From an uncultured Deinococcales bacterium (GTDB lineage Bacteria > Deinococcota > Deinococci > Deinococcales > Trueperaceae), in assembly GCA_937934635.1 (NCBI GenBank), contig CALGZD010000045.1, positions 1-11,369 of the forward strand: a stretch of 11,369 nucleotides of DNA, in the 5' to 3' direction. Each line of letters begins with the position of its first letter. The first letter of the stretch is position 1. Below, in pieces: positions 1 to 10,060 of the stretch. A program made the position numbers and the translations under genes. The notes beneath the pieces are model-generated. The model searched no databases. It was not told where the DNA came from and saw nothing but the letters and a program-made list of their open reading frames with translations.

Positions 1-46
1 GCTATTCAGACTAAAACCATCTTTCAACCTGAAATGGGACGCACCC
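1..46 (-). mobile_element. End of a MITE-like element, truncated by the window edge
   Basis: These 46 bases match the reverse complement of 2582-2627 with one difference (C at 17 in place of T). They finish with the 11-base terminal motif gggacgcaccc at 36-46. This is therefore the outer end of a second copy of the element described at 2582-2772, in the opposite orientation. The rest of the copy, and its other target-duplication arm, lie left of the window, so insertion borders cannot be confirmed here. If it made a 9-bp duplication, the inner arm would be 47-55. Confidence 0.75.
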
Positions 47-1547: not shown

Positions 1548-2531
1548 CTACAAATTCAAAGGCAGGATGTCGTTTACGATGTTCTGCCTTAACTCTTGAA
1601 CAGCCTCTAACTCTTCTTCATCAAGTTTTGTATCTTGCATAACTGCGTGTAGGTACAAATATAAATCGACTTGTCGCCACATTAAAAAATCAGGGATGTG
1701 CTCTAGCCACATAGCATCAAGCTGATTTTCTTCTTGATAGCCAAGCATAAATTGACGGTAAACGTTCTTACCGTGCTGCTCTTGCACTTCTTTAGAAGCC
1801 TCATGACCTTCAGGCAAAAATCTACGGTAGTAGTACATGGCGGTGGCTATATCCATAGCAAACCAACCGTAGAGGCAATCTGCGAAATCAAGAACTGTGA
1901 TTTTATGGTTTACTTTATCTAGAAAAAAGTTATCGCTGTGGAAATCAGCATGGATTAGAGCGTAACTGTTAGTGTCGGTAGGGAGATTGCGAAGTGTGTT
2001 GTAGAGAGATTTGATGGCGGCCCTAGCCTCATCATCCTCAGGTACATTCTTCTCCCATTCTGCCACATGCTCATCAACAAACCAATCATTTCGCTTCTGA
2101 GATTCTTTAGCAACATAGCTTTTACTAATGTTGTGCATCTTCCCCATTGTTCGTCCCATTTGCTTATAGAGCTCATCCGAAGCATCTTCTTTCGATACTT
2201 CAGCTCCACTTGCTTTTTCAAAACAGCTTGCTAAAAAAGCAGACTTGTTTGGTAGGTCTACTACTTCAACCAGTTCGTCATTGTTTGACAAAATCGGTGC
2301 TGCAACAGATGCACCACCATCTGCCAAATGCCTAATAAAACTCAGCTCAGCCAAAATACTGTCTTTTGAAGTATAGCTATCATGGTGAACTTTTAGGACA
2401 CTTTCTCCAGCATCAAAAACCAAGCTTTCATAACCATCTAAAGCTTTTAGGTTTGTTGCGTCTAGACCAAATCGACCTGCTATAGTTTCTTGAATTTCAG
2501 CAACAAATTGTTCGGCAACAGAACGAATCAT
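1548..2531 (-). CDS. Aminoglycoside-phosphotransferase-family small-molecule kinase
   Basis: A 327-residue protein of the APH/choline-kinase fold, which transfers the ATP gamma-phosphate to a hydroxyl of a small molecule or, in some branches, a protein. Visible motifs are a probable ATP-contacting lysine in the N-lobe (Lys47 in SVLKVHH), the catalytic loop HADFHSDN (His194, Asp196, Asn201) and the metal-binding DFAD with Asp215. Length is close to the SrkA/homoserine-kinase-like branches, but the sequence is not clearly either. It is not evidently a resistance enzyme. No strong Shine-Dalgarno precedes the ATG; the first in-frame Met fits the fold's start. It is codirectional with the catabolic operon upstream, from which it is separated by 250 bp, 200 of which are the MITE and one target copy. 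Before that insertion it would have sat 50 bp behind the thioesterase gene, so it may phosphorylate a pathway substrate or intermediate. The substrate is unknown. Confidence 0.85.
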   Translation of the reverse strand: MIRSVAEQFVAEIQETIAGRFGLDATNLKALDGYESLVFDAGESVLKVHHDSYTSKDSILAELSFIRHLADGGASVAAPILSNNDELVEVVDLPNKSAFLASCFEKASGAEVSKEDASDELYKQMGRTMGKMHNISKSYVAKESQKRNDWFVDEHVAEWEKNVPEDDEARAAIKSLYNTLRNLPTDTNSYALIHADFHSDNFFLDKVNHKITVLDFADCLYGWFAMDIATAMYYYRRFLPEGHEASKEVQEQHGKNVYRQFMLGYQEENQLDAMWLEHIPDFLMWRQVDLYLYLHAVMQDTKLDEEELEAVQELRQNIVNDILPLNL

Positions 2532-2572
2532 AATTAAAAGTTTAGCAAAAACTACGAACTATATACAAAGTT

Positions 2573-2581
2573 AAAATACAC
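2573..2581. repeat. Target site duplication, left copy
   Basis: The nine bases aaaatacac abut the first base of the inverted repeat at 2582 and are repeated exactly at 2773-2781 on the other side of the element. This is the expected footprint of a transposition event. Confidence 0.85.
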
Positions 2582-2772
2582 GGGTGCGTCCCATTTCAGG
2601 TTGAAAGATGATTTTAGTCTGAATAGCATGTTTTCAAACGAAGTGTAATGAACAGTTTTTATGTTCATTCATAAACTGCCGAGGTGCGTCCCAGACGATG
2701 GTGAAAACTATATAGATGTGGAAACTATATAGATATAGTCATGTACGTTTCAACCTTGAGCGGGACGCACCC
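2582..2772. mobile_element. 191-bp MITE with terminal inverted repeats
   Basis: The element starts gggtgcgtccc (2582-2592) and ends gggacgcaccc (2762-2772), a perfect 11-bp terminal inverted repeat. The similarity continues inward (gap of five poorly matching bases, then aggttgaaa), giving about 20 of 24 matching bases. A perfect 9-bp direct repeat flanks it. It contains no credible reading frame, so it must have been moved by a transposase encoded elsewhere. Inside are a third end-like motif (ggtgcgtccc at 2683-2692), an imperfect hairpin at about 2653-2678, and a 13-bp direct repeat (2705-2717 and 2722-2734, period 17). A 9-bp duplication is seen with several insertion-sequence families (for example IS1 or some IS4 members), so the parent family cannot be assigned. 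The element abuts the thioesterase stop codon and its inverted ends could fold in transcripts and reduce read-through into the kinase gene. Confidence 0.8.
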
Positions 2773-2781
2773 AAAATACAC
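2773..2781. repeat. Target site duplication, right copy
   Basis: An exact second copy of aaaatacac, directly following the last base of the element at 2772. It ends one base before the thioesterase stop codon (2782-2784 on the minus strand), so the insertion did not disturb the coding sequence. Confidence 0.85.
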
Positions 2782-3249
2782 TCACACTACAGAATAGCTT
2801 GCAGTGCCAATAGCAATGAGGTCGTCTTTTTCATTGCGGACTTCCATACGTGTAACTGCAACTCGTTTGCCCAATCGCACAAGCTCTGAGCTAGCAATAA
2901 AACGCTCACCCCATCCAGGCTTTAGAAAGTCCACACGCATATCAATCGTGCCAAGTTTCGAAATTCGCAATAGCATCTCGTTTAAATCATCGCTTTCAAA
3001 AGCATTCAGCACAGCCGAGGTCACTGCAATACCACCAACAACATCTAACAGCGAGGAGGTCACACCACCGTGCAATATACCTTGTGCCATGTTGCCAACC
3101 AATTCATCAGCCATATCGACAGTGATTTGTGCACTCTTCTCGGTAACATCTAAAACTGTGATGCCTACATGTTTATTAAAAGGCAGTACATTATATATGT
3201 GACGAATATTTTCGTAAATTAGCTTTTGCTTTTGGGTAAGTTCATGCAT
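2782..3249 (-). CDS. yigI: Hotdog-fold acyl-CoA thioesterase, YigI family
   Basis: A 155-residue hotdog-fold thioesterase, exactly the length of E. coli YigI as I recall it. Shared features include VGNMAQGILHGGV with the following LLDVVGG (likely catalytic Asp), RISKLGTIDMRVDFLKPG, GERF and the late VAVTRMEVRNE. E. coli YigI hydrolyses medium- and long-chain acyl-CoA thioesters. Here the gene is the last of the minus-strand operon, 15 bp after the short-chain dehydrogenase, so it may instead release a pathway acid or free CoA from a dead-end thioester. No good Shine-Dalgarno is visible in the short gap, suggesting translational coupling to the upstream gene. The stop codon directly touches the target duplication of the MITE. 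Family assignment is firm; the substrate in this cluster is inferred only. Confidence 0.85.
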   Translation of the reverse strand: MHELTQKQKLIYENIRHIYNVLPFNKHVGITVLDVTEKSAQITVDMADELVGNMAQGILHGGVTSSLLDVVGGIAVTSAVLNAFESDDLNEMLLRISKLGTIDMRVDFLKPGWGERFIASSELVRLGKRVAVTRMEVRNEKDDLIAIGTASYSVV

Positions 3250-3264
3250 TAAAAAAAATTGGAC

Positions 3265-4017
3265 TTACGTTAAAGGTCTACCACCATCAACAGGAATAAT
3301 ATCGCCTGTTGAGAATTTCAAATGCTCAGCAATTGCATAGACTGCTTCTGCTACGTCTTTTGCTTGAGCAAGACGCTTTAGAGGCGTAGCATCTCGCTGA
3401 GCTTGATTCCATTCAGGATCTAGCTTTTCAGTATAAGGTCCTTCGACAAGTCCTGGCGCAACTGACAGCACTCGAATATCTGGAGCAAGTGCCCTAGCCA
3501 AAGAACGCGTCATAGAATCCATCGCAGCTTTTGAGGCACAGTAAGCAACATTGCTACCATTACCCGTACGTGCAGCAATTGAAGAAATATTCACCACAAC
3601 CGCATCATCAGAGGCTAGCAAGAGTTCTTTGAATCCTCGAATCATAGCAAATGCACCACGCACATTCACTTGAAAAATTTGGTCAAAAAAGTCATCGTCC
3701 AGCCCATCAAGATCATCATGGGCGACAAACTTGCTAAAGCCTGCATTGTTCACTAGAACATCTAATTTGCCGTAGTGGCTGTGGACCGCTTGAACGATAC
3801 GCTGGATGCTCGAGCTATCATCCACCTCTACTCTTAATGCACTATGCCCAATACCCTCAAGACTACGCAGCAAATCATCAGCAGCCTCCTGACTGCTTCG
3901 GTAAGTAACAACTACTTGATAGCCCGACTCAGCAAATCGCTTACAAATTGCTGAACCAATTCCACCTGTAGCCCCAGTAATTAATGCAACCTTCGGACTA
4001 GTTTGACTCATCAACAT
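3265..4017 (-). CDS. Short-chain dehydrogenase/reductase, FabG-like
   Basis: A classical 250-residue SDR that should oxidise a secondary alcohol or reduce a ketone with NAD(P). It has the cofactor motif TGATGGIG (14-21), NNAG (90-93), the catalytic Asn118, Ser146, and Tyr159/Lys163 in YCASK. Arg40 after the second strand (TYRSS) suggests NADP(H) preference, by family precedent. The reading frame opens at 4017, but Met3 (start at 4011) is preceded by gag six bases upstream and would give a 248-residue protein; I slightly prefer it. It follows the HisD-family gene by 51 bp and precedes the thioesterase by 15 bp. A FabG role in fatty-acid synthesis is possible from sequence alone but unlikely given the catabolic neighbours and no fab genes. 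Substrate not determined. Confidence 0.87.
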   Translation of the reverse strand: MLMSQTSPKVALITGATGGIGSAICKRFAESGYQVVVTYRSSQEAADDLLRSLEGIGHSALRVEVDDSSSIQRIVQAVHSHYGKLDVLVNNAGFSKFVAHDDLDGLDDDFFDQIFQVNVRGAFAMIRGFKELLLASDDAVVVNISSIAARTGNGSNVAYCASKAAMDSMTRSLARALAPDIRVLSVAPGLVEGPYTEKLDPEWNQAQRDATPLKRLAQAKDVAEAVYAIAEHLKFSTGDIIPVDGGRPLT

Positions 4018-4038
4018 CTCGATTCATATACCAATATT

Positions 4039-4058
4039 TTATAGATACTAATCTATAA
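4039..4058 (-). other. Intercistronic stem-loop
   Basis: A perfect 8-bp inverted repeat, ttatagat (4039-4046) and atctataa (4051-4058), with a four-base loop, lies between the HisD-family gene and the SDR gene. It has no T-run and is AT-rich, so termination is unlikely. It may be an mRNA processing or stability structure, or chance in AT-rich spacer. Confidence 0.3.
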
Positions 4059-4068
4059 GCGACTACTT

Positions 4069-5343
4069 TTAATCTCCATAACGCCTAATACGCAATAGTG
4101 CTTGCTCACGATGACCAGCAAAGCCTTCCATTTCACAAATCTTAGCACAGTTTTGTCCCACAAGAACGCTTGCAGACTTTGTAGCCTTTTGGTAGGTCAC
4201 TGTTTTGATATATTTACCGACCCACAAACCACCTGTATATCGTGCAGCTTTATTCGTAGGCAAAATATGGTTTGTACCAATAGCTTTATCACCATAGGCC
4301 ACATTGGTTTCTTGACCCAAAAACAGTGAACCGTAGTTGGTCATATTCTCTAAAAAATAATCTGGGTCTTTGGTGAGTATCTCAACATGTTCAGAAGCAA
4401 TGTCATCGGCGACTTTAACCATTTCAGCATCATCTTTCGCTAAGATAATTTGACCATAGGTCTTCCACGCTTCACCAGCAACTTCAGCAGTAGCTAGAGT
4501 CTCTAACTGCCTATCAATCTCAGCCTGAATGCCATTAGCAAGTTCTTCACTTGTCGTGAGCAGTACAGCAGGAGAGTTTGGACCATGTTCTGCTTGACCA
4601 AGCAAATCTGTAGCAATAATTTCTAGATCCGCAGATTCATCTGCTATCACTAAAACTTCAGTTGGTCCAGCAAGAAGGTCGATACCAACTGTTCCAAATA
4701 GCTGCCGCTTTGCCTCAGCTACATAAGCATTACCGGGACCAACTAACATGTCAACAGGATTCATAAACTCAGTACCAAGTGCCATCGACACCATTGCTTG
4801 GACACCACCAAGTACATAGATTTCATCTGCACCAGCCATTGCCATTGTGGCAACCGTTGCGGGGTAAGGCAAGCCATCTTTTGGAGGGGTACATGCCACC
4901 ACACGTTGTACACCTGCAACTTTTGCTGTTGCAATACTCATAATGCCTGATGCAAGCATCGGGTAACGTCCACCTGGGATATAAGCACCAACATTATTGA
5001 TGGGAATATTTTTGTGTCCTAAAATAACGCCAGGCATTGTTTCAACTTCAACATCTTGAAGTGCTGCACGTTGATGTTTAGCAAAGGTTGTGACTTGATC
5101 AAGTGTAAATTGAATCGCAGCGATTTCATCATCTGGAACTTGAGCTACAAGTTCATCAATTTGGGCTTGGCTTAAACGAAAACTATCAGGACTATAGTTA
5201 TCAAACTTTTCAGATAGCTCTCTAACAGCAGCTTCGCCTCTTGTGCTTACATCATTGATAATATCTTCTACAGTTTTACGAACACCAGCGTCAATATTTT
5301 GTTTGGTATCAACATCGATACCTCTTTTGATATAGGTTGCCAT
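4069..5343 (-). CDS. Histidinol-dehydrogenase-family NAD-dependent alcohol dehydrogenase (HpsN-like)
   Basis: A 424-residue member of the Zn- and NAD-dependent histidinol dehydrogenase family, which oxidises a primary alcohol to a carboxylate in two steps. The active site is intact: Glu318/His319, and Zn ligands Gln250, His253, Asp352 and His411. The segment YIPGGRYPMLASGIM (121-135) and the C-terminal GTNHILPT with ARYTGGLWVGKYIKTVT resemble sulfopropanediol 3-dehydrogenase (HpsN) and related catabolic enzymes more than biosynthetic HisD. No his genes are nearby; the neighbours are a hydrolase, an SDR and a MetE-like protein. A strong Shine-Dalgarno (aaggaga, 5351-5357) fixes the start. The enzyme most likely oxidises a hydroxymethyl group of the pathway substrate. 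Sulfonate substrates are a possibility by family resemblance, not shown here, and no sulfolactate lyase or sulfonate transporter genes are in the window. Confidence 0.88.
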   Translation of the reverse strand: MATYIKRGIDVDTKQNIDAGVRKTVEDIINDVSTRGEAAVRELSEKFDNYSPDSFRLSQAQIDELVAQVPDDEIAAIQFTLDQVTTFAKHQRAALQDVEVETMPGVILGHKNIPINNVGAYIPGGRYPMLASGIMSIATAKVAGVQRVVACTPPKDGLPYPATVATMAMAGADEIYVLGGVQAMVSMALGTEFMNPVDMLVGPGNAYVAEAKRQLFGTVGIDLLAGPTEVLVIADESADLEIIATDLLGQAEHGPNSPAVLLTTSEELANGIQAEIDRQLETLATAEVAGEAWKTYGQIILAKDDAEMVKVADDIASEHVEILTKDPDYFLENMTNYGSLFLGQETNVAYGDKAIGTNHILPTNKAARYTGGLWVGKYIKTVTYQKATKSASVLVGQNCAKICEMEGFAGHREQALLRIRRYGD

Positions 5344-5379
5344 TTTTGATTCTCCTTATCTAACCTTAGTTAGTTGGAA

Positions 5380-6066
5380 TTAAGTATTATCTAGAAAAAA
5401 GTCTTTCAGTAAATTACTCACTTTTACAGGTTGTTCAAGTGGACTGTAGTGTCCACAATTTGCCAAGGAAACAAAACTTGAATCCACAATCTTCTGGTGC
5501 ATTTCATAATGAACTGAAACAGGTGTCAGTCTATCTTCACGACCACAAAGTAATAAAGTTGGACATGAAATATCCGATAGCGTTGGTTGACTATCTTTTC
5601 TTGTCTTTAAAATTTGCAATTGCCTTTGTAAACAATCTGTACCTTGTTGCTGAGCCATATCCCAGATAGTTCTACGACATGCGTCCTGAACAATACTATC
5701 CTTAAAATCATGGATGATTTCTGGGAAACCACCCTTATCAAGTTTGCTCGTCCAACTATCCCAAGTTTGCAACTGCTTATTTGATGTCGCCGCAGGATTT
5801 ACATTCATCAGTACCATTGATTGAACACGCTCGGGAGCTTGCCGTTGCATTTCAAATGCAATTACACCACCCATAGAAAAACCTACTAAAGAAAAGTGCT
5901 GAGGTAAGCCATCTAAAATCAAAGTTGCAAGTTCCTCAACTGAATTTCCTCTATTCAAAGTATCAATCGTGATATTTGCAAAATCACTTAGATGATTCTT
6001 CTGAACTCGAAAACACTCCTCAGTACACAGCGTTCCCGTTAGAAAGACGACATTTTTCTCTAGCAT
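5380..6066 (-). CDS. Alpha/beta hydrolase
   Basis: A 228-residue single-domain alpha/beta hydrolase with a complete predicted triad: nucleophile Ser64 in GFSMGG (62-67), Asp178 in GREDRLTP and His206 in NCGHYSPLEQP. The N-terminal VVFLTGTLCTEECF is the expected first strand and oxyanion region. There is no signal peptide, so it should act in the cytoplasm. It would cleave an ester, lactone, thioester or C-C bond; sequence does not discriminate. It lies 44 bp after the MetE-like gene and 36 bp before the HisD-family gene in the same operon. No clear Shine-Dalgarno precedes the ATG, unlike its downstream neighbour. It is shorter than the roughly 260-280 residues common in C-C hydrolases, with a small cap region. 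Confidence 0.85.
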   Translation of the reverse strand: MLEKNVVFLTGTLCTEECFRVQKNHLSDFANITIDTLNRGNSVEELATLILDGLPQHFSLVGFSMGGVIAFEMQRQAPERVQSMVLMNVNPAATSNKQLQTWDSWTSKLDKGGFPEIIHDFKDSIVQDACRRTIWDMAQQQGTDCLQRQLQILKTRKDSQPTLSDISCPTLLLCGREDRLTPVSVHYEMHQKIVDSSFVSLANCGHYSPLEQPVKVSNLLKDFFLDNT

Positions 6067-6110
6067 TACTTTTATACAGTACTTGAAATAATCAAAGCTA
6101 AATGAGCTAA

Positions 6111-7247
6111 TTAAGCCCTAGCAGATGCAATCTCCGCACCTTCAGCCATTGCACCCAACTTCGCCCAACAGATGCTTGGATGAATCGCACCAAAGCCAGC
6201 AAAGGTACCAAAGCCACAATCCGAACCAGCCATCACCCTATCTACACCTACGATATTTGTAAATCGTTCAAGTCGCTGAGCAACAAGTTCAGGGTGCTCA
6301 ACAAAATTAGCAGTCGTATCGACAACACCAGGTACTAAGACTTTATTTTCTGGTATTTGGTCCTTATGTTCAGCCCAAACTTTCCACTCATGTGCATGTC
6401 GAGCATTTGCTGCTTCAAATAAAACAGCTTGCGGTTTAGCTTTCATAACCACATCAAAGATTTTTTCAAAAGGAATATCATGCGTATGTGGACCTTCGTA
6501 GTTGCCCCAGCAAACATGCATCCGCAAGTTTTCAGCAGGTACATTCTCTAAGGCATAATTTAATGCTTCCACTTGCATTTCAGCATTCTTTACAAAGGTA
6601 GCGTCATCTACATCACGAAATTTAATGTGTCTACCCATGGCTAAATCAGGGCAATCAATCTGTAGCTGAATGCCCGCCTCATTAATCATCTCGTACTCTG
6701 TTTTCATTGCTTCTGCTAGCGCTTGAAGATAGCTTTCATGGCTGTCGTAGTATTCATTTGGCTGAAACACAGCAACCACACCTGGTGACGCTGCATTCAT
6801 AAAAGCTGCTCCTGCTCCTGAAACATCCATTGCAGCTTTCAGATTGACCAAATCTTTTTCTAAGCCACTTAAATCTTTAACTTTTATTTCGCCTCGGCAA
6901 ATCGGACGGTTATATTTTGGTGTACCGCCTTGGGCAGCAAGTTTGTCTCTGAACTCTGGAAATTCATCTAAATCTTTTGGTGTAGCTCTTGGTGCTTCAC
7001 CAATTTCAAAACCAGTCAGTCTGTGGCGAATATAGGTAGCGTAGCTAATTTTGCTCATCTCACCATCGCTAACTACATCAACACCTGCATCAACTTGTTT
7101 TTGCACAATGTCTTTGACTGCAGCTGTCATAACAGCATCAAAAGCATCTAGGGTATCGAGTTCACCTTTATCCTGGGCAAAGAGCATATCTACAACGTCT
7201 TGTGAACGTGGCATACTGCCAACATGGGTAGTCTTTATTCGACTCAT
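6111..7247 (-). CDS. MetE C-terminal-domain-like zinc thiol-transferase
   Basis: A 378-residue protein of the cobalamin-independent methionine synthase (Meth_synt_2) superfamily. It corresponds to the C-terminal catalytic barrel only, about half the length of true MetE. It starts THVGSMPRS, a family hallmark, and retains all four Zn ligands expected from MetE: His244 and Cys246 (HVCWGNY), Glu278 (LFEAANARH) and Cys344 (GSDCGFGTFAG). The family activates a thiolate on zinc for alkyl transfer. Length and architecture resemble epoxyalkane:coenzyme M transferase and uncharacterised catabolic relatives, so it probably makes or breaks a C-S bond, or transfers a methyl group, on the pathway substrate. 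Its start codon overlaps the cupin stop as ATGA (7244-7247), indicating translational coupling. A bona fide methionine synthase is unlikely because the N-terminal domain is missing and the context is catabolic. Confidence 0.85.
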   Translation of the reverse strand: MSRIKTTHVGSMPRSQDVVDMLFAQDKGELDTLDAFDAVMTAAVKDIVQKQVDAGVDVVSDGEMSKISYATYIRHRLTGFEIGEAPRATPKDLDEFPEFRDKLAAQGGTPKYNRPICRGEIKVKDLSGLEKDLVNLKAAMDVSGAGAAFMNAASPGVVAVFQPNEYYDSHESYLQALAEAMKTEYEMINEAGIQLQIDCPDLAMGRHIKFRDVDDATFVKNAEMQVEALNYALENVPAENLRMHVCWGNYEGPHTHDIPFEKIFDVVMKAKPQAVLFEAANARHAHEWKVWAEHKDQIPENKVLVPGVVDTTANFVEHPELVAQRLERFTNIVGVDRVMAGSDCGFGTFAGFGAIHPSICWAKLGAMAEGAEIASARA

Positions 7248-7906
7248 TTCAACTCAACTCCATCCTTTGCACCAAGTTTATCTAGCATATCTTTCTCAAG
7301 CTCAGCATAATTATCAGGTTTCATCATTTTCCCTGTTTCATCTGCATGAAAGCCTGCTTTCTCTGCTGCTTTAGTAACATACGGTGACCAATATGGATCT
7401 TTACCTGTAAATACCTTATGTTCCTCAAGAATACCAATAGCTAAGGCTTCACCTTCTTGACCTTCAGCAACTTCAAAGCCACGCCAGACATTTGGCGGAA
7501 AAGAGATCAAATCCCACTTTTCTAAAAAGATTTCACCTTCTACAGTTTCCGCATCTGGTCCATAGTAAAAACGCCATTTATGGTCAGTCAGAGGCATAAA
7601 CGCTTCTATGTAATCATGTCTGTGATAGGCAGGACCATTGCCTGCGGTACAGGTGAACATACCCACTTGAAAACCGTGAGGGGCTGTAATTGATGGTGAA
7701 AAGCTTGGATTTTCACTCGCAGTATCACCAATGACTGCATAGTTTAGTCGTTCATGACCCTTTAGGATTGAATCAATAAACATAAGGCTTACGGGTCGCT
7801 CACGTAACTCGCCAAAACGACTCACCATATTTTCCATAATGCCTTCTCCTGTAGATGTTTCAGAAGAAAAGGCTGGTTTTTGCTCTCTAGGATCAATATC
7901 AGACAT
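7244..7906 (-). CDS. Cupin-domain protein, first gene of the operon
   Basis: A 220-residue protein with one cupin barrel at about residues 75-165. The first metal motif is present: His95, His97 and Glu101 in YHRHDYIEAF. In the second motif, PPNVWRGFE, the usual metal-binding histidine position is occupied by Arg142, so any metal would have only three protein ligands. An N-terminal extension of about 70 residues and a lysine-rich C-terminal tail flank the barrel. Cupins of this size act as dioxygenases, isomerases, lyases or sugar/ligand binders; function is not assignable. A good Shine-Dalgarno (aggagt, 7915-7920) sets the start. It is the promoter-proximal gene, divergent from the LacI-family regulator, and overlaps the MetE-like gene by four bases, so the two products probably work on the same or consecutive steps. 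Confidence 0.82.
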   Translation of the reverse strand: MSDIDPREQKPAFSSETSTGEGIMENMVSRFGELRERPVSLMFIDSILKGHERLNYAVIGDTASENPSFSPSITAPHGFQVGMFTCTAGNGPAYHRHDYIEAFMPLTDHKWRFYYGPDAETVEGEIFLEKWDLISFPPNVWRGFEVAEGQEGEALAIGILEEHKVFTGKDPYWSPYVTKAAEKAGFHADETGKMMKPDNYAELEKDMLDKLGAKDGVELK

Positions 7907-7926
7907 TAGTTTGGACTCCTATTCCT

Positions 7927-7966
7927 ACTTAGATATGGGTAATTTAAATTTATGATTAGTCTAAGT
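7927..7966. promoter_or_regulatory. Inverted repeat in the divergent promoter region, possible operator
   Basis: Perfect 7-bp arms acttaga (7927-7933) and tctaagt (7960-7966) are 33 bp apart centre to centre, about three helical turns. A 10-bp palindrome aatttaaatt (7941-7950) sits between them. The right arm touches the predicted -10 box of the operon promoter and the whole structure covers its expected start point. Binding there would repress transcription. The spacing is wider than a usual LacI-family operator and there is no central CG, so the assignment is tentative. Confidence 0.35.
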
Positions 7967-7993
7967 TATATCAGACGATGAATACCTATGCAA
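7965..7993 (-). promoter_or_regulatory. Predicted sigma70 promoter of the cupin operon
   Basis: On the minus strand, a -35 box ttgcat (7988-7993, three of six consensus bases) and a -10 box tataac (7965-7970, five of six) are separated by exactly 17 bp. TG one base before the -10 makes it an extended -10 promoter, which compensates for a weak -35. Transcription would start near 7958, giving a leader of about 50 nt before the cupin start codon. Confidence 0.55.
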
Positions 7994-8051
7994 CAGCGCA
8001 AACGTCATCAAAGCAATTTCACCTTCAAAATGATGTTAAACTGAACAGTCT

Positions 8052-9077
8052 ATGGGTGAGAAAAAGCATATAAGTTCTGTTGATGTTGCCAAAGCCGCAG
8101 GTGTTTCACAATCAGCGGTCTCAAGAGCTTTTACACCTAAGGGGAAAATCTCAGCTAAAACCAGAGATCACATCTTACAAGTGGCTAGTGAACTAGGTTA
8201 TTCACCCAATGCCTTAGCAAGAAGCCTTGTAAAACAACATGGCGACTTAGTAGCTGTACTAACCTATCGACAAACTAATCCTTTTTATGATGCTGTCTTG
8301 CATCAATTGGCTGAGAGCTTACAACAACATGGAAAGCAAGCGCTTTTTCTGAAAATTGAAGATGAAAGCAATGCACAAGAAAGCTTGTTACTTGCCAAGC
8401 AATACCGAGTACAGGCAGTCATCATGCTATCTATCACCTTAACCTCAACCATCATTGAACAATTTTCTGCTATCGGCATCCCTGTCATTCTTTTCAACCG
8501 TTACCAAAAATCTAGTAGCGCTAATTTTGTCGCTGTTTCCTGCAATAACTTTAAAGGTGGGCAAGATATTGCAGACAGCTTGCTTGCTGCTGGGCATAAA
8601 CGTTTTGCTTATATAGGAGGTAAGCCCAATACGTCCACAAATCAGGATAGACGTGATGGTTTTATCGACAAACTTGGTAAAGCAGGCATAGATCTCAGCT
8701 TTAGCATCGAACGTGAGTATAGTTATGAATGGGGCTGTGAAGCAGTGAGGATGATATACAGCTCGAGCCCACCCCAAAGCTCTCCCGATGCCATCTTTTG
8801 TGCAAACGACACCATCGCACTTGGCGCACTAGACACCTTAAAACTTGAACTAGGAAAAAAAGTTCCAGAAGATGTTTCGGTAGTAGGCTTTGACGATATT
8901 CCCACAGCTAGCTTTAAAGCCTATGACCTTAGTACTGTCCAGCAACCTCTGGAAAAAATGATGGCAGAAACCTTAAACATTTTGGAAGAGCGTCCTTTTG
9001 ACACGCTAGATGGACCAGATATTCGTTTTATTGAGGGTGATTTCATTCAGCGCGGTTCTTCACTAGTTCTTTCTTAA
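8052..9077 (+). CDS. LacI-family transcriptional regulator
   Basis: A 341-residue LacI/GalR-type regulator. The N-terminal helix-turn-helix (about 8-27, SSVDVAKAAGVSQSAVSRAF) is followed by the hinge region YSPNALARSLV (50-60). The remainder is a periplasmic-binding-protein-like effector domain, with the family segments GHKRFAYIGG, DAIFCANDTIALGAL and VSVVGFDDIP. Such proteins usually repress a neighbouring catabolic operon until a sugar or other pathway metabolite binds. It is divergent from the cupin gene with 145 bp between start codons, so it most likely controls that operon and perhaps itself. No Shine-Dalgarno is visible before the ATG, which suggests weak or leaderless translation, consistent with a low-abundance repressor. 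A 14-bp tandem repeat begins in its last codons and runs past the stop. Confidence 0.93.
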   Translation: MGEKKHISSVDVAKAAGVSQSAVSRAFTPKGKISAKTRDHILQVASELGYSPNALARSLVKQHGDLVAVLTYRQTNPFYDAVLHQLAESLQQHGKQALFLKIEDESNAQESLLLAKQYRVQAVIMLSITLTSTIIEQFSAIGIPVILFNRYQKSSSANFVAVSCNNFKGGQDIADSLLAAGHKRFAYIGGKPNTSTNQDRRDGFIDKLGKAGIDLSFSIEREYSYEWGCEAVRMIYSSSPPQSSPDAIFCANDTIALGALDTLKLELGKKVPEDVSVVGFDDIPTASFKAYDLSTVQQPLEKMMAETLNILEERPFDTLDGPDIRFIEGDFIQRGSSLVLS

Positions 9078-9116
9078 CTAGTTCTTCTTAACTAGTTCTT
9101 CTTGTAGTAGTTCTTC
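9062..9116. repeat. Short tandem repeat over the regulator stop codon
   Basis: Units of about 14 bp (actagttcttctta) occur at 9062-9076 (with one extra base), 9077-9090 and 9091-9103, followed by a degraded copy (gtagtagttcttc, 9104-9116). The first unit supplies the last codons and stop of the LacI-family gene. It fills nearly all of the 56-bp space between this gene and the convergent lyase gene. Each unit contains the 8-bp palindrome aactagtt, but I see no proper intrinsic terminator. Confidence 0.65.
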
Positions 9117-9133
9117 AACAACCAAATAAGACT

Positions 9134-10060
9134 TTAAATTGATTTCGGAAAAAACCGTGTTTTACTCCTCAAGGTAGCTTTAGCAACTTTTGAGCCATCA
9201 CTAGCAACCACTTTTCTGATGCCCTCTCCTACTTCAATCAATTTATCTGTATCAATCGCACCATCAAGTTCACAACCATAACCTTGCAACATATACAGCA
9301 AATCTTCAGTTGCTACATTACCTGTCGCACCTTCTGCGTAGGGACAGCCACCCAAACCTGCAACCGAACTATCAAATACCCGAACACCTTTTTCAAGTCC
9401 AAGCAATACATTTAGCAAAGCTTGTCCATAGGTGTCATGCAAATGTAAAGCCAATCTATCACTAGATACTGATGCAGTAATATCATCAAGCAAGTTACCC
9501 ATTCGCTGAACTGTTGCGACACCAATCGTATCTCCAAGCGATAGCTCATAACATCCCATATCAAATAGTGCTTCTACAACTGGCACGACCTTAGCAGAAT
9601 CAACCCATCCTTCGTATGGGCAACCAATAACACACGATACATAGCCTCTTACACGTATTCCCGCCTCAAGCGCCTCTATAACAACAGGACGAATACCTTC
9701 AATGCTTTCTTGAACCGTGCAGTTAATGTTTTTTTCTGAGAAACTATCGCTTGCTGCAACGAATACAGCAATTGTTTTGACGTCTATCGTTTGGGCTCGA
9801 GCCAACCCCCTAGCATTTGGCACAAGCATATGTAACTTTTCAGCATCCAAGCCCAAAGCCACAGCTTTCTGATATACCTCATCACTATTTGCCATCTGAG
9901 GTACCCACTTGGGTGAAACCAAACTACCGACTTCAATATCTTGTAAACCTGCTTCAGCTAAGCCTTGTATCAACGCTACTTTATCATCAACACTTAGATG
10001 TTTAGCCTCGTTTTGCAAACCATCTCTTGGTCCAACTTCAACAATCTTTACTTTAGTCAT
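9134..10060 (-). CDS. Hydroxymethylglutaryl-CoA lyase
   Basis: A 308-residue HMGL-family aldolase-type lyase that splits 3-hydroxy-3-methylglutaryl-CoA into acetoacetate and acetyl-CoA, the last step of leucine and isovalerate breakdown. The TIM-barrel motifs are complete: EVGPRDGLQNE with Arg12/Asp13, Glu43 in IEVGSLVSPKWVPQM, metal-binding His206/His208 in HLHDTYGQ, and the signature loop GLGGCPYAEGATGNVATEDL with Cys239. There is no targeting peptide. Length is normal. It follows ivd by 17 bp on the same strand, so the two are probably cotranscribed. Unlike typical liu operons, no carboxylase or hydratase genes lie between them. A weak agagaa is the only Shine-Dalgarno-like sequence before the start, so translation may rely on coupling to ivd. 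Confidence 0.94.
   Translation of the reverse strand: MTKVKIVEVGPRDGLQNEAKHLSVDDKVALIQGLAEAGLQDIEVGSLVSPKWVPQMANSDEVYQKAVALGLDAEKLHMLVPNARGLARAQTIDVKTIAVFVAASDSFSEKNINCTVQESIEGIRPVVIEALEAGIRVRGYVSCVIGCPYEGWVDSAKVVPVVEALFDMGCYELSLGDTIGVATVQRMGNLLDDITASVSSDRLALHLHDTYGQALLNVLLGLEKGVRVFDSSVAGLGGCPYAEGATGNVATEDLLYMLQGYGCELDGAIDTDKLIEVGEGIRKVVASDGSKVAKATLRSKTRFFPKSI

What the first reader, a model, noticed from the sequence alone, without database searches (positions are those of the whole stretch)
2782..9077. Unrecognised six-gene inducible operon with a divergent LacI-family regulator
The sequence shows cupin, MetE-barrel protein, alpha/beta hydrolase, HisD/HpsN-type dehydrogenase, SDR and YigI-type thioesterase, all codirectional with gaps of 51 bp or less and one ATGA overlap, facing a LacI-type gene. 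Family knowledge predicts C-S or methyl transfer, hydrolysis, oxidation of a primary and a secondary alcohol, and thioester cleavage. Inference: a catabolic route for a thioether, sulfonate or methylated compound. I know no described pathway with this exact set. No transporter or CoA ligase is present, so partners must be elsewhere.
Basis: partly seen in the sequence, partly recalled or inferred. Interest (0 to 1): 0.72.

Follow-up and report, generated by a model that had tools for sequence, protein, structure and literature searches.

The report
Undescribed catabolic operon shared across phyla
This six-gene bacterial operon belongs to a recurring but apparently undescribed set of genes that probably breaks down a methylated, sugar-like compound, and its key dehydrogenase is not the sulfonate enzyme it resembles.

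Summary
The six co-directional genes and the divergent LacI-type gene are there as described. Five of them (cupin, MetE-like, α/β hydrolase, HisD-like, SDR) recur with LacI in Chloroflexota and Pseudomonadota; Deinococcus and Priestia have the set without MetE. The YigI-type thioesterase had no match in any fetched locus. In 369 genomes of one class, 8 of 11 with the window-type HisD also carry the MetE-like gene, 0.3 expected. The DHPS reading fails its best test: HpsN's diagnostic His126 (GRY[AS]H) is Met here (GRYPM) and is not His in any of 36 readable relatives. The HisD lies in a 43-row clade (100/100) apart from HpsN. The MetE-like protein keeps the zinc- and homocysteine-site residues of E. 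coli MetE but has lost folate-side residues and the N-terminal domain. Best reading: oxidative catabolism of a methylated sugar- or polyol-like compound, its methyl passed to homocysteine, ending at a pyruvate-forming aldolase. Relatives encode that aldolase and a sugar transporter nearby; the window has neither. Substrate unknown; boldest candidate: the mycosporine/gadusol core.

The parts
7244..7906 (-). cupin, first gene of the operon
   Evidence: ORF; H95, H97 and E101 (HxH...E) invariant in 25 aligned sequences; 585 proteins at E<=1e-3 among 749 candidates, 120 listed
6111..7247 (-). MetE-like single-domain protein, proposed homocysteine methyltransferase with a non-folate methyl donor
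   Evidence: MetE catalytic-domain fold, zinc and homocysteine residues kept, folate-side residues and N-terminal domain lost
5380..6066 (-). alpha/beta hydrolase
   Evidence: Abhydrolase_1; nearest solved structures are esterases, with meta-cleavage C-C hydrolases further down the list; Ser (GFSMGG), Asp and His motifs can be read in the translation
4069..5343 (-). HisD-like dehydrogenase of a clade that is neither housekeeping HisD nor HpsN; proposed oxidation of a primary alcohol to a carboxylate
   Evidence: zinc and catalytic residues kept, motif GRYPM
3265..4017 (-). SDR dehydrogenase
   Evidence: an SDR stands beside the HisD-like gene in many relatives
2782..3249 (-). YigI-type hotdog thioesterase; last ORF of the run, not part of the conserved set
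   Evidence: PRK11688 174.4 bits (cut-off 107); no tblastn match at E<=1e-4 in any fetched locus
8052..9077 (+). divergent LacI-family regulator
   Evidence: LacI genes recur in the set
7907..8051 (.). 145-bp divergent intergenic region, expected place of operator and promoters
   Evidence: no inverted repeat of 8 bp or more found in 7890-8070 and no promoter-like site listed inside it

Best explanation
The window carries one version of a catabolic gene set found in several phyla, under a LacI-type repressor, for a methylated sugar- or polyol-like compound. Proposed work: the substrate is imported by a transporter encoded elsewhere; the HisD-like enzyme oxidises a primary alcohol to a carboxylate in two NAD+ steps and the SDR oxidises a secondary alcohol; the MetE-like enzyme transfers a methyl group from the substrate or an intermediate to zinc-bound homocysteine, giving methionine and a demethylated product; the α/β hydrolase opens a lactone or cleaves a C-C bond; the cupin is an isomerase or helper; the product is a 4-hydroxy-2-oxo acid that an HpcH/HpaI- or RraA-type aldolase (near the operon in relatives, not in this window) cleaves to pyruvate plus an aldehyde or oxo acid. 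Shown: gene order, conservation, clade and residue patterns, predicted fold of the MetE-like protein. Inferred: every reaction, their order, the methyl donor and the substrate class.
For: Recurrence: among 80 loci found through the MetE-like protein (best 80 of 469), 30 hold a HisD-like gene (42% identity or more), and of these 25 SDR, 26 LacI, 23 cupin, 20 α/β hydrolase, 23 aldolase, 27 SnoaL and 25 a transporter. L006 (Chloroflexota) has the window's own order cupin-MetE-hydrolase-HisD-SDR. Start from HisD instead: 7 of 10 window-type stretches of at least 12 kb contain the MetE-like gene, against 0 of 4 around HpsN-type HisD; without G005, which was reached through MetE, 6 of 9. One further window-type match (L102) lies on a 3.3-kb contig and was not counted. 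Genome level: 8 of 11 against 0.3 expected, hypergeometric p 9e-13. Sugar-like substrate: sugar ABC systems near the set, nearest solved relatives of one binding protein (L081) a sugar ABC protein and a trehalose/maltose binder, aldolases nearest YfaU, HpaI and GarL though below the NCBIfam cut-offs, SMP-30 proteins and fuconolactonase-like proteins, also below cut-off, in some loci. Methyl to homocysteine: S11, E63, D198 and the zinc ligands H244, C246, E278, C344 invariant in 30 of 30 sequences, while positions matching E. coli W561, E605 and H694 are changed in all 30. HisD chemistry: zinc and catalytic residues complete in 37 of 39 rows, the other two being cut short.
Against: No enzyme was assayed and no substrate is known. 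Not all sets hold MetE: Priestia L088, Deinococcus L089, Sinorhizobium L090, Klebsiella L091, Roseibium L092 and Novosphingobium L093 lack it in the stretch shown, so demethylation cannot be the heart of the pathway. Three of ten window-type HisD stretches show only an SDR (L122, L123, L128). 27 of 53 MetE-found loci of at least 14 kb have no HisD. The window itself lacks transporter, SnoaL and aldolase. MetE relatives also occur near syringate/protocatechuate-type genes, in Rhodococcus without the set and in haloarchaea, so this protein family has more than one context. Roles of the E. coli MetE residues are recalled, not from a call. SnoaL, aldolase and transporter counts used queries taken from the same loci, so they describe rather than test. 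Sugar ABC neighbours only suggest the substrate class.
Confidence: 0.45

Rival explanations
1. DHPS (2,3-dihydroxypropanesulfonate) or another sulfonate is the substrate and the HisD-like gene is HpsN.
For: HpsN and (R)-DHPS dehydrogenase are the closest solved structures by sequence (1e-112, 2.9e-106), and an SDR stands beside it, as HpsO is an SDR of the DHPS pathway (PMC11131964, passages seen). The Lys next to the zinc Asp is kept.
Against: His126, which PMC11382572 gives as the mark of HpsN and binder of the sulfonate (abstract and passages seen), is Met in the window and not His in any of 36 readable motifs. 15 of 27 HisD matches in the class search are GRY[AS]H; the 14 of these kept in the tree form a separate 100/100 group, and the 4 HpsN-type loci fetched at length lack cupin, MetE, SnoaL, hydrolase and aldolase matches.
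Confidence: 0.04
2. Mycosporine/gadusol-type compounds are the substrate: amino substituents are removed, the C7 hydroxymethyl is oxidised by the HisD-like enzyme, the O-methyl is removed by the MetE-like enzyme, the six-membered diketone ring is opened by the hydrolase, and 4-carboxy-4-hydroxy-2-oxoadipate (CHA) or a near relative is cleaved by the aldolase to pyruvate and oxaloacetate.
For: Carbon count and functional groups of the C7 core (tertiary alcohol bearing CH2OH, enol methyl ether, 1,3-diketone; recalled) fit the enzyme set. Optional amidase or CN-hydrolase genes and a serine dehydratase near two MetE-bearing loci, L061 and L062, would fit amino-acid substituents. The RraA-type protein of L081 keeps an E-X20-R-D stretch that can be read (its meaning is recalled). 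Hosts include Octadecabacter from offshore Alaska, Roseibium from a Rhodosorus culture and freshwater Novosphingobium.
Against: No direct evidence at all. Hosts also include Medicago-associated Sinorhizobium and leaf Priestia. The HpcH-type aldolases are nearest to sugar-acid and HpaI aldolases and the RraA protein is far from any solved one (5.1e-9). An amidase match also fell in one control stretch, L150. Two searches for bacterial use of mycosporines listed 13 papers, none showing such a gene cluster in its title or the start of its abstract; their texts were not read.
Confidence: 0.1
3. The MetE-like protein is an ordinary methyl-THF:homocysteine methyltransferase that only disposes of, or supplies, methyl groups made by other enzymes, and the rest is a plain sugar-acid pathway.
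For: Homocysteine site intact; in Croceicoccus L086 and Novosphingobium L085 relatives stand near aminomethyltransferase, methylenetetrahydrofolate reductase, folD-type and purU genes.
Against: Positions of W561, E605 and H694 are changed in all 30 sequences and the N-terminal domain is absent; no C1-folate genes are annotated beside the HisD-bearing sets read with annotation; in L083 genes annotated DmdA and GcvT lie in a neighbouring DMSP block.
Confidence: 0.2
4. The operon is a chance run of unrelated genes.
For: The last gene (YigI type) is not conserved in the set and the flanks look ordinary: galE, a kinase, and genes of leucine-degradation type.
Against: Recurrence of five of six genes with LacI in other phyla against 20 control stretches.
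Confidence: 0.02

Closest known systems
HpsN, sulfopropanediol 3-dehydrogenase (PDB 8v35, 8wwe)
   Same: HisD family, zinc and catalytic residues, Lys by the zinc Asp, SDR neighbour
   Different: His126 replaced by Met; separate supported clade; different gene neighbours
Histidinol dehydrogenase HisD
   Same: Family PF00815/TIGR00069
   Different: GRYPM instead of GSAPL, and of GRAAY or GTAPL in the four housekeeping copies read; all 7 host genomes tested carry a separate 34-40% identical copy
MetE, cobalamin-independent methionine synthase (1xdj, 3rpd, E. coli MetE)
   Same: Catalytic barrel, zinc ligands, homocysteine residues
   Different: No N-terminal domain; folate-side residues changed
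Sugar-acid routes ending in HpcH/HpaI-type aldolases (YfaU, GarL)
   Same: Dehydrogenases, lactonase-like hydrolases, LacI control, sugar ABC transport and a pyruvate-type aldolase in relatives
   Different: HisD-like, MetE-like and SnoaL-like members have no counterpart in the routes I know (recalled)

Membership tests
HpsN (DHPS 3-dehydrogenase) | G-R-Y-A/S-H motif, His126 | tested here: not met
   Window GRYPM; 0 of 36 readable relatives have His; 15 of 27 matches in the class search do, as HpsN type
HpsN (DHPS 3-dehydrogenase) | Zinc ligands and catalytic Glu, His, Asp | tested here: met
   Q, H, E, H, D, K, H complete in 37 of 39 rows, two cut short
HpsN (DHPS 3-dehydrogenase) | Falls in the HpsN clade | tested here: not met
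   43-row clade 100/100 without any HpsN-motif row; HpsN-motif 14 rows 100/100
HpsN (DHPS 3-dehydrogenase) | Sulfolyase (SuyAB, Xsc or CuyA) in the pathway | not tested
   None among the annotated neighbours read; no targeted search was made
HisD (histidine biosynthesis) | G-S-A-P-L motif | tested here: not met
   GRYPM
HisD (histidine biosynthesis) | The genome's housekeeping copy | not testable with these tools
   No genome held for the window; 7 of 7 relatives' genomes carry a separate 34-40% copy
MetE methionine synthase | Zinc ligands His, Cys, Glu, Cys and homocysteine residues | tested here: met
   30 of 30, placed
MetE methionine synthase | Folate residues W561, E605, H694 and N-terminal domain (roles recalled) | tested here: not met
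   F/Y/T, M/L/G and T/V/C/S/K in 30 of 30; 378 aa, single domain
LacI regulator | LacI HTH and periplasmic-binding-like domain | tested here: met
   PF00356 50.4 bits, PF13377 88.2 bits, both above cut-off
LacI regulator | Palindromic operator in the divergent promoter region | tested here: inconclusive
   One simple scan found no inverted repeat of 8 bp or more in 7890-8070; imperfect operators would be missed
Mycosporine/gadusol catabolism (proposed) | Activity on the C7 core | not testable with these tools
   Needs enzymes and substrates
Pyruvate-forming aldolase pathway | HpcH/HpaI or RraA gene with the set | tested here: inconclusive
   23 of 30 HisD-bearing MetE loci have one; the window has none

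The most novel reading that the evidence does not exclude
This is the first seen genetic route for bacterial breakdown of mycosporine/gadusol-type sunscreens: a HisD-clade enzyme turns the ring hydroxymethyl into a carboxylate, a MetE-fold enzyme moves the ring O-methyl straight to homocysteine, and the opened C7 core ends as 4-carboxy-4-hydroxy-2-oxoadipate, cleaved to pyruvate and oxaloacetate.
Probability: 0.1. Interest if true: 0.85.

Novelty: new variant of a known kind. Interest (0 to 1): 0.52.

Why it matters
HisD-like genes of this kind are annotated as histidinol dehydrogenase in plasmid records read or could be mistaken for HpsN, so DHPS use could be over-called in genomes; one motif separates them. 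The set is spread over several phyla in marine, freshwater, soil and plant-associated hosts, so its substrate is probably common. A MetE-fold enzyme that takes methyl from a catabolic substrate to homocysteine would be a corrinoid- and folate-free demethylase, directly testable with purified protein.

Tried and rejected
DHPS/sulfonate reading: rejected by motif, clade and neighbours. Thioesterase as a pathway member: rejected, no match in any fetched locus at E<=1e-4. Operator search: one simple scan, nothing; promoter-like sites in 2500-9200 no more than in shuffles (11 against mean 15.4) and terminator-like sites 8 against 5.0. Rfam: nothing above gathering score. Literature: 10 searches gave no paper with this set; seven of them returned nothing at all. 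Zero hits are weak evidence: gene lists are rarely in main texts, and most subscription journals and bioRxiv preprints are not held. Host identity: not settled; isovaleryl-CoA dehydrogenase relatives are mixed. No near copy of the Klebsiella plasmid version in the E. coli collection. Control stretch L136 held a cupin, hydrolase and RraA of the same set, so one of 20 controls is not clean: its genome G265 has HisD, SDR and MetE on another contig. The P[ML] motif as such is not one clade: 10 rows with it lie outside the 43-row clade, and HpsN-motif rows branch among them under midpoint rooting. Rows dropped before counts: 3 of 13 MetE matches (41-42% identity); L102 (3.3-kb contig) from the neighbourhood count; L113 and other short or repeated HisD rows from the tree (one search kept 71 rows).
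Full report
What is there. The window (11,369 bp, 41% G+C) holds galE, an APH-type kinase, then on the minus strand a run of six genes, a divergent LacI-type gene, and two more minus-strand genes. Of those two, 10078-11253 matches isovaleryl-CoA dehydrogenases; 9134-10060 looks like an HMG-CoA lyase by my reading of its translation and was not searched on its own. No whole genome is held for the window.

Is the set conserved? A scan of genome contigs with the MetE-like protein gave 481 pattern matches, of which 469 encode a relative at tblastn E<=1e-3; the best 80 loci were kept. They come from Trueperaceae (74% identity), Chloroflexota, Acidobacteria-type MAGs, Burkholderiales, sphingomonads, Devosia, Microbacterium and others. 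Among the 80, 30 hold a HisD-like gene (42% identity or more) within the locus; of those 30, 25 hold an SDR, 26 a LacI gene, 23 a cupin, 20 an α/β hydrolase, 27 a SnoaL-like ('ester cyclase') gene, 23 an HpcH- or RraA-type aldolase and 25 a transporter. Many loci are clipped by contig ends; of the 53 of at least 14 kb, 26 hold HisD and 27 do not. L006 (Chloroflexota) has the window's order cupin-MetE-hydrolase-HisD-SDR; the Burkholderiales locus L042 has all five with LacI in another order. The queries for SnoaL, aldolase and transporter, and further queries for the other families, were taken from some of these loci, so these counts describe the family rather than test it.

Controls. Twenty control stretches of about 19.9 kb from genomes reached in the searches (four of them centred on the housekeeping HisD) held SDR matches in 6, LacI in 1, TonB receptor in 1, amidase in 1, MetE in 0, SnoaL in 0, and cupin, hydrolase and aldolase in 1 and the same stretch, L136. 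L136 lies in genome G265, whose HisD, SDR and MetE lie on another contig, so it is a split copy of the set.

Independent start. A search with the window HisD in 369 genomes of the class of G005 gave 21 genomes at E<=1e-100 and 27 matches. Eleven matches (L094-L104, 57-65%) have the motif G[RK][YF]P[ML]; fifteen have GRY[AS]H; one has GRYPL. The MetE-like protein occurs at 55% identity or more in 10 of the 369 genomes (13 at E<=1e-80; three at 41-42% were left out). Overlap with the 11: 8 genomes, 0.3 expected, p 9e-13; without the centre genome G005, 7 of 10, p 2.5e-11; none of the 10 genomes with only the HpsN type has it. The genomes are related, so the p-value is only a guide. Neighbourhood: 7 of 10 window-type stretches of at least 12 kb hold MetE (6 of 9 without G005), 0 of 4 HpsN-type stretches do; three window-type stretches (L122, L123, L128) show only an SDR.

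What the HisD-like enzyme is not. PMC11382572 (abstract and passages seen) states that HpsN differs from HisD by a motif GRY[A/S]H whose His126 binds the sulfonate, while HisD has GSAPL. The window reads GRYPM. Of 39 aligned relatives in the loci held at that point, 36 have the motif readable and none has His; 8 further copies in plasmid loci have none. Zinc and catalytic residues are complete in 37 of 39 rows, the other two being cut short. In a tree of 71 rows the window lies in a 43-row clade with support 100/100, HpsN-motif rows form their own clade of 14 (100/100), and the four housekeeping copies a third. The P[ML]-type motif is also found in 10 rows outside the 43, and in some sets a second HisD-like gene of that other kind is in the same locus (L032, L049, L053, L055, L077, L089, L093).

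What the MetE-like enzyme may do. The AlphaFold2 model (23 rows, mean pLDDT 91) matches the catalytic domain of T. maritima MetE best (TM 0.76-0.78 by query length). hhalign and HMMER alignments with MetE place V9-G10-S11 on I431-S433, E63 on E484, D198 on D599, E278 on E665 and C344 on C726 of E. coli MetE; HMMER places H244 and C246 on the zinc His and Cys, where the hhalign alignment opens a gap or shifts. All but position 9 are invariant in 30 of 30 sequences. Positions matching W561, E605 and H694 are F (28 of 30), M or L (29 of 30) and T, V, C, S or K (30 of 30), never the E. coli residue, and the N-terminal domain is missing. The roles of these E. coli residues (homocysteine, zinc, folate, proton donor) are recalled. 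Inference: it still binds homocysteine at zinc but takes its methyl group from something other than folate.

What else belongs. Annotated relatives give a fuller picture. Ruegeria L081, Octadecabacter L082 and Marinovum L083 plasmids hold HisD, LacI, SnoaL/NTF2-type genes, cupin, MetE and hydrolase, with sugar ABC genes nearby; L081 and L082 also an SDR and a gene annotated RraA family, while L083 shows no SDR and labels the gene at the same place demethylmenaquinone methyltransferase, an old label for RraA-type proteins (recalled). Priestia L088, Deinococcus L089, Sinorhizobium L090, Klebsiella L091, Roseibium L092 and Novosphingobium L093 hold versions without MetE in the stretch shown. Amidase or CN-hydrolase genes occur in some; Amidohydro_2 proteins, two of which score weakly as fuconolactonase, in six distinct loci (one search lists seven, but L134 and L056 are the same region); SMP-30-type proteins in four Chloroflexota loci. 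So the stable core looks like HisD, SDR, cupin, hydrolase, aldolase and LacI; MetE, SnoaL and amidase are options. The thioesterase of the window matched nothing.

How it probably works. Sugar-type ABC transport, LacI control, lactonase-like hydrolases and aldolases nearest to YfaU, HpaI and GarL (all below NCBIfam cut-offs) point to a sugar- or polyol-like substrate oxidised to a 4-hydroxy-2-oxo acid and cleaved to pyruvate. The HisD-like enzyme would oxidise a CH2OH beside a carbon with OH (as HpsN does) to a carboxylate; the MetE-like enzyme would remove a methyl group onto homocysteine; the hydrolase, nearest to esterases with meta-cleavage C-C hydrolases further down the list, would open a lactone or cut a C-C bond. 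All reactions are inferred. The window lacks transporter and aldolase; they would have to lie elsewhere in its genome.

The boldest reading is the mycosporine/gadusol core. Its C7 skeleton, CH2OH on a tertiary alcohol, enol methyl ether and diketone (recalled) could, by the reactions above plus one more terminal oxidation, end at 4-carboxy-4-hydroxy-2-oxoadipate, the kind of substrate that RraA-family aldolases are known to cleave (recalled). Optional amidases and a serine dehydratase near two MetE-bearing loci would fit amino substituents. But there is no direct evidence, hosts also include legume- and leaf-associated bacteria, and the HpcH-type aldolases look like sugar-acid aldolases. I give it 0.1.

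Verdict. Observation confirmed; interpretation partly right. It is a real, widespread and, as far as 10 searches of an open-access library show, undescribed catabolic set.

Noticed in passing
window 36-45 (-), 2583-2592 (+), 2683-2692 (+), 2762-2771 (-): GGTGCGTCCC occurs four times where 0.14 is expected; three copies sit in the 2532-2781 gap after the operon, with imperfect inverted arms of 25-31 nt: possibly a REP- or MITE-like repeat.
   Followed up: partly
window 2701-2734: A 17-bp unit GTGAAAACTATATAGAT is repeated in tandem once with one change, between the thioesterase and kinase genes.
   Followed up: no
L085 11995-13122, L086 12001-13131: MetE-like relatives (52-54% identity) stand near protocatechuate 4,5-dioxygenase, aminomethyltransferase, methylenetetrahydrofolate reductase, purU and folD-type genes in Novosphingobium and Croceicoccus plasmids, suggesting a role with methoxy-aromatic compounds.
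   Followed up: no
L087 7989-9137: Haloarchaeal plasmids carry MetE-like relatives (about 37-43% identity, 19 of the 40 records listed), here beside AMP-binding and branched-chain ABC genes.
   Followed up: no
L136 from 1761 to about 4150, and L124: Genome G265 has the set split over two contigs: cupin, hydrolase and RraA on one, HisD, SDR and MetE on another.
   Followed up: partly
L083 17800-25101: In Marinovum algicola plasmid pMaD9 the set lies near genes annotated as DMSP demethylase and DMSP breakdown.
   Followed up: no
L006 7806-9158: A flavin oxidase above the NCBIfam cut-off for N-methyl-L-tryptophan oxidase stands just upstream of the Chloroflexota version of the set.
   Followed up: no
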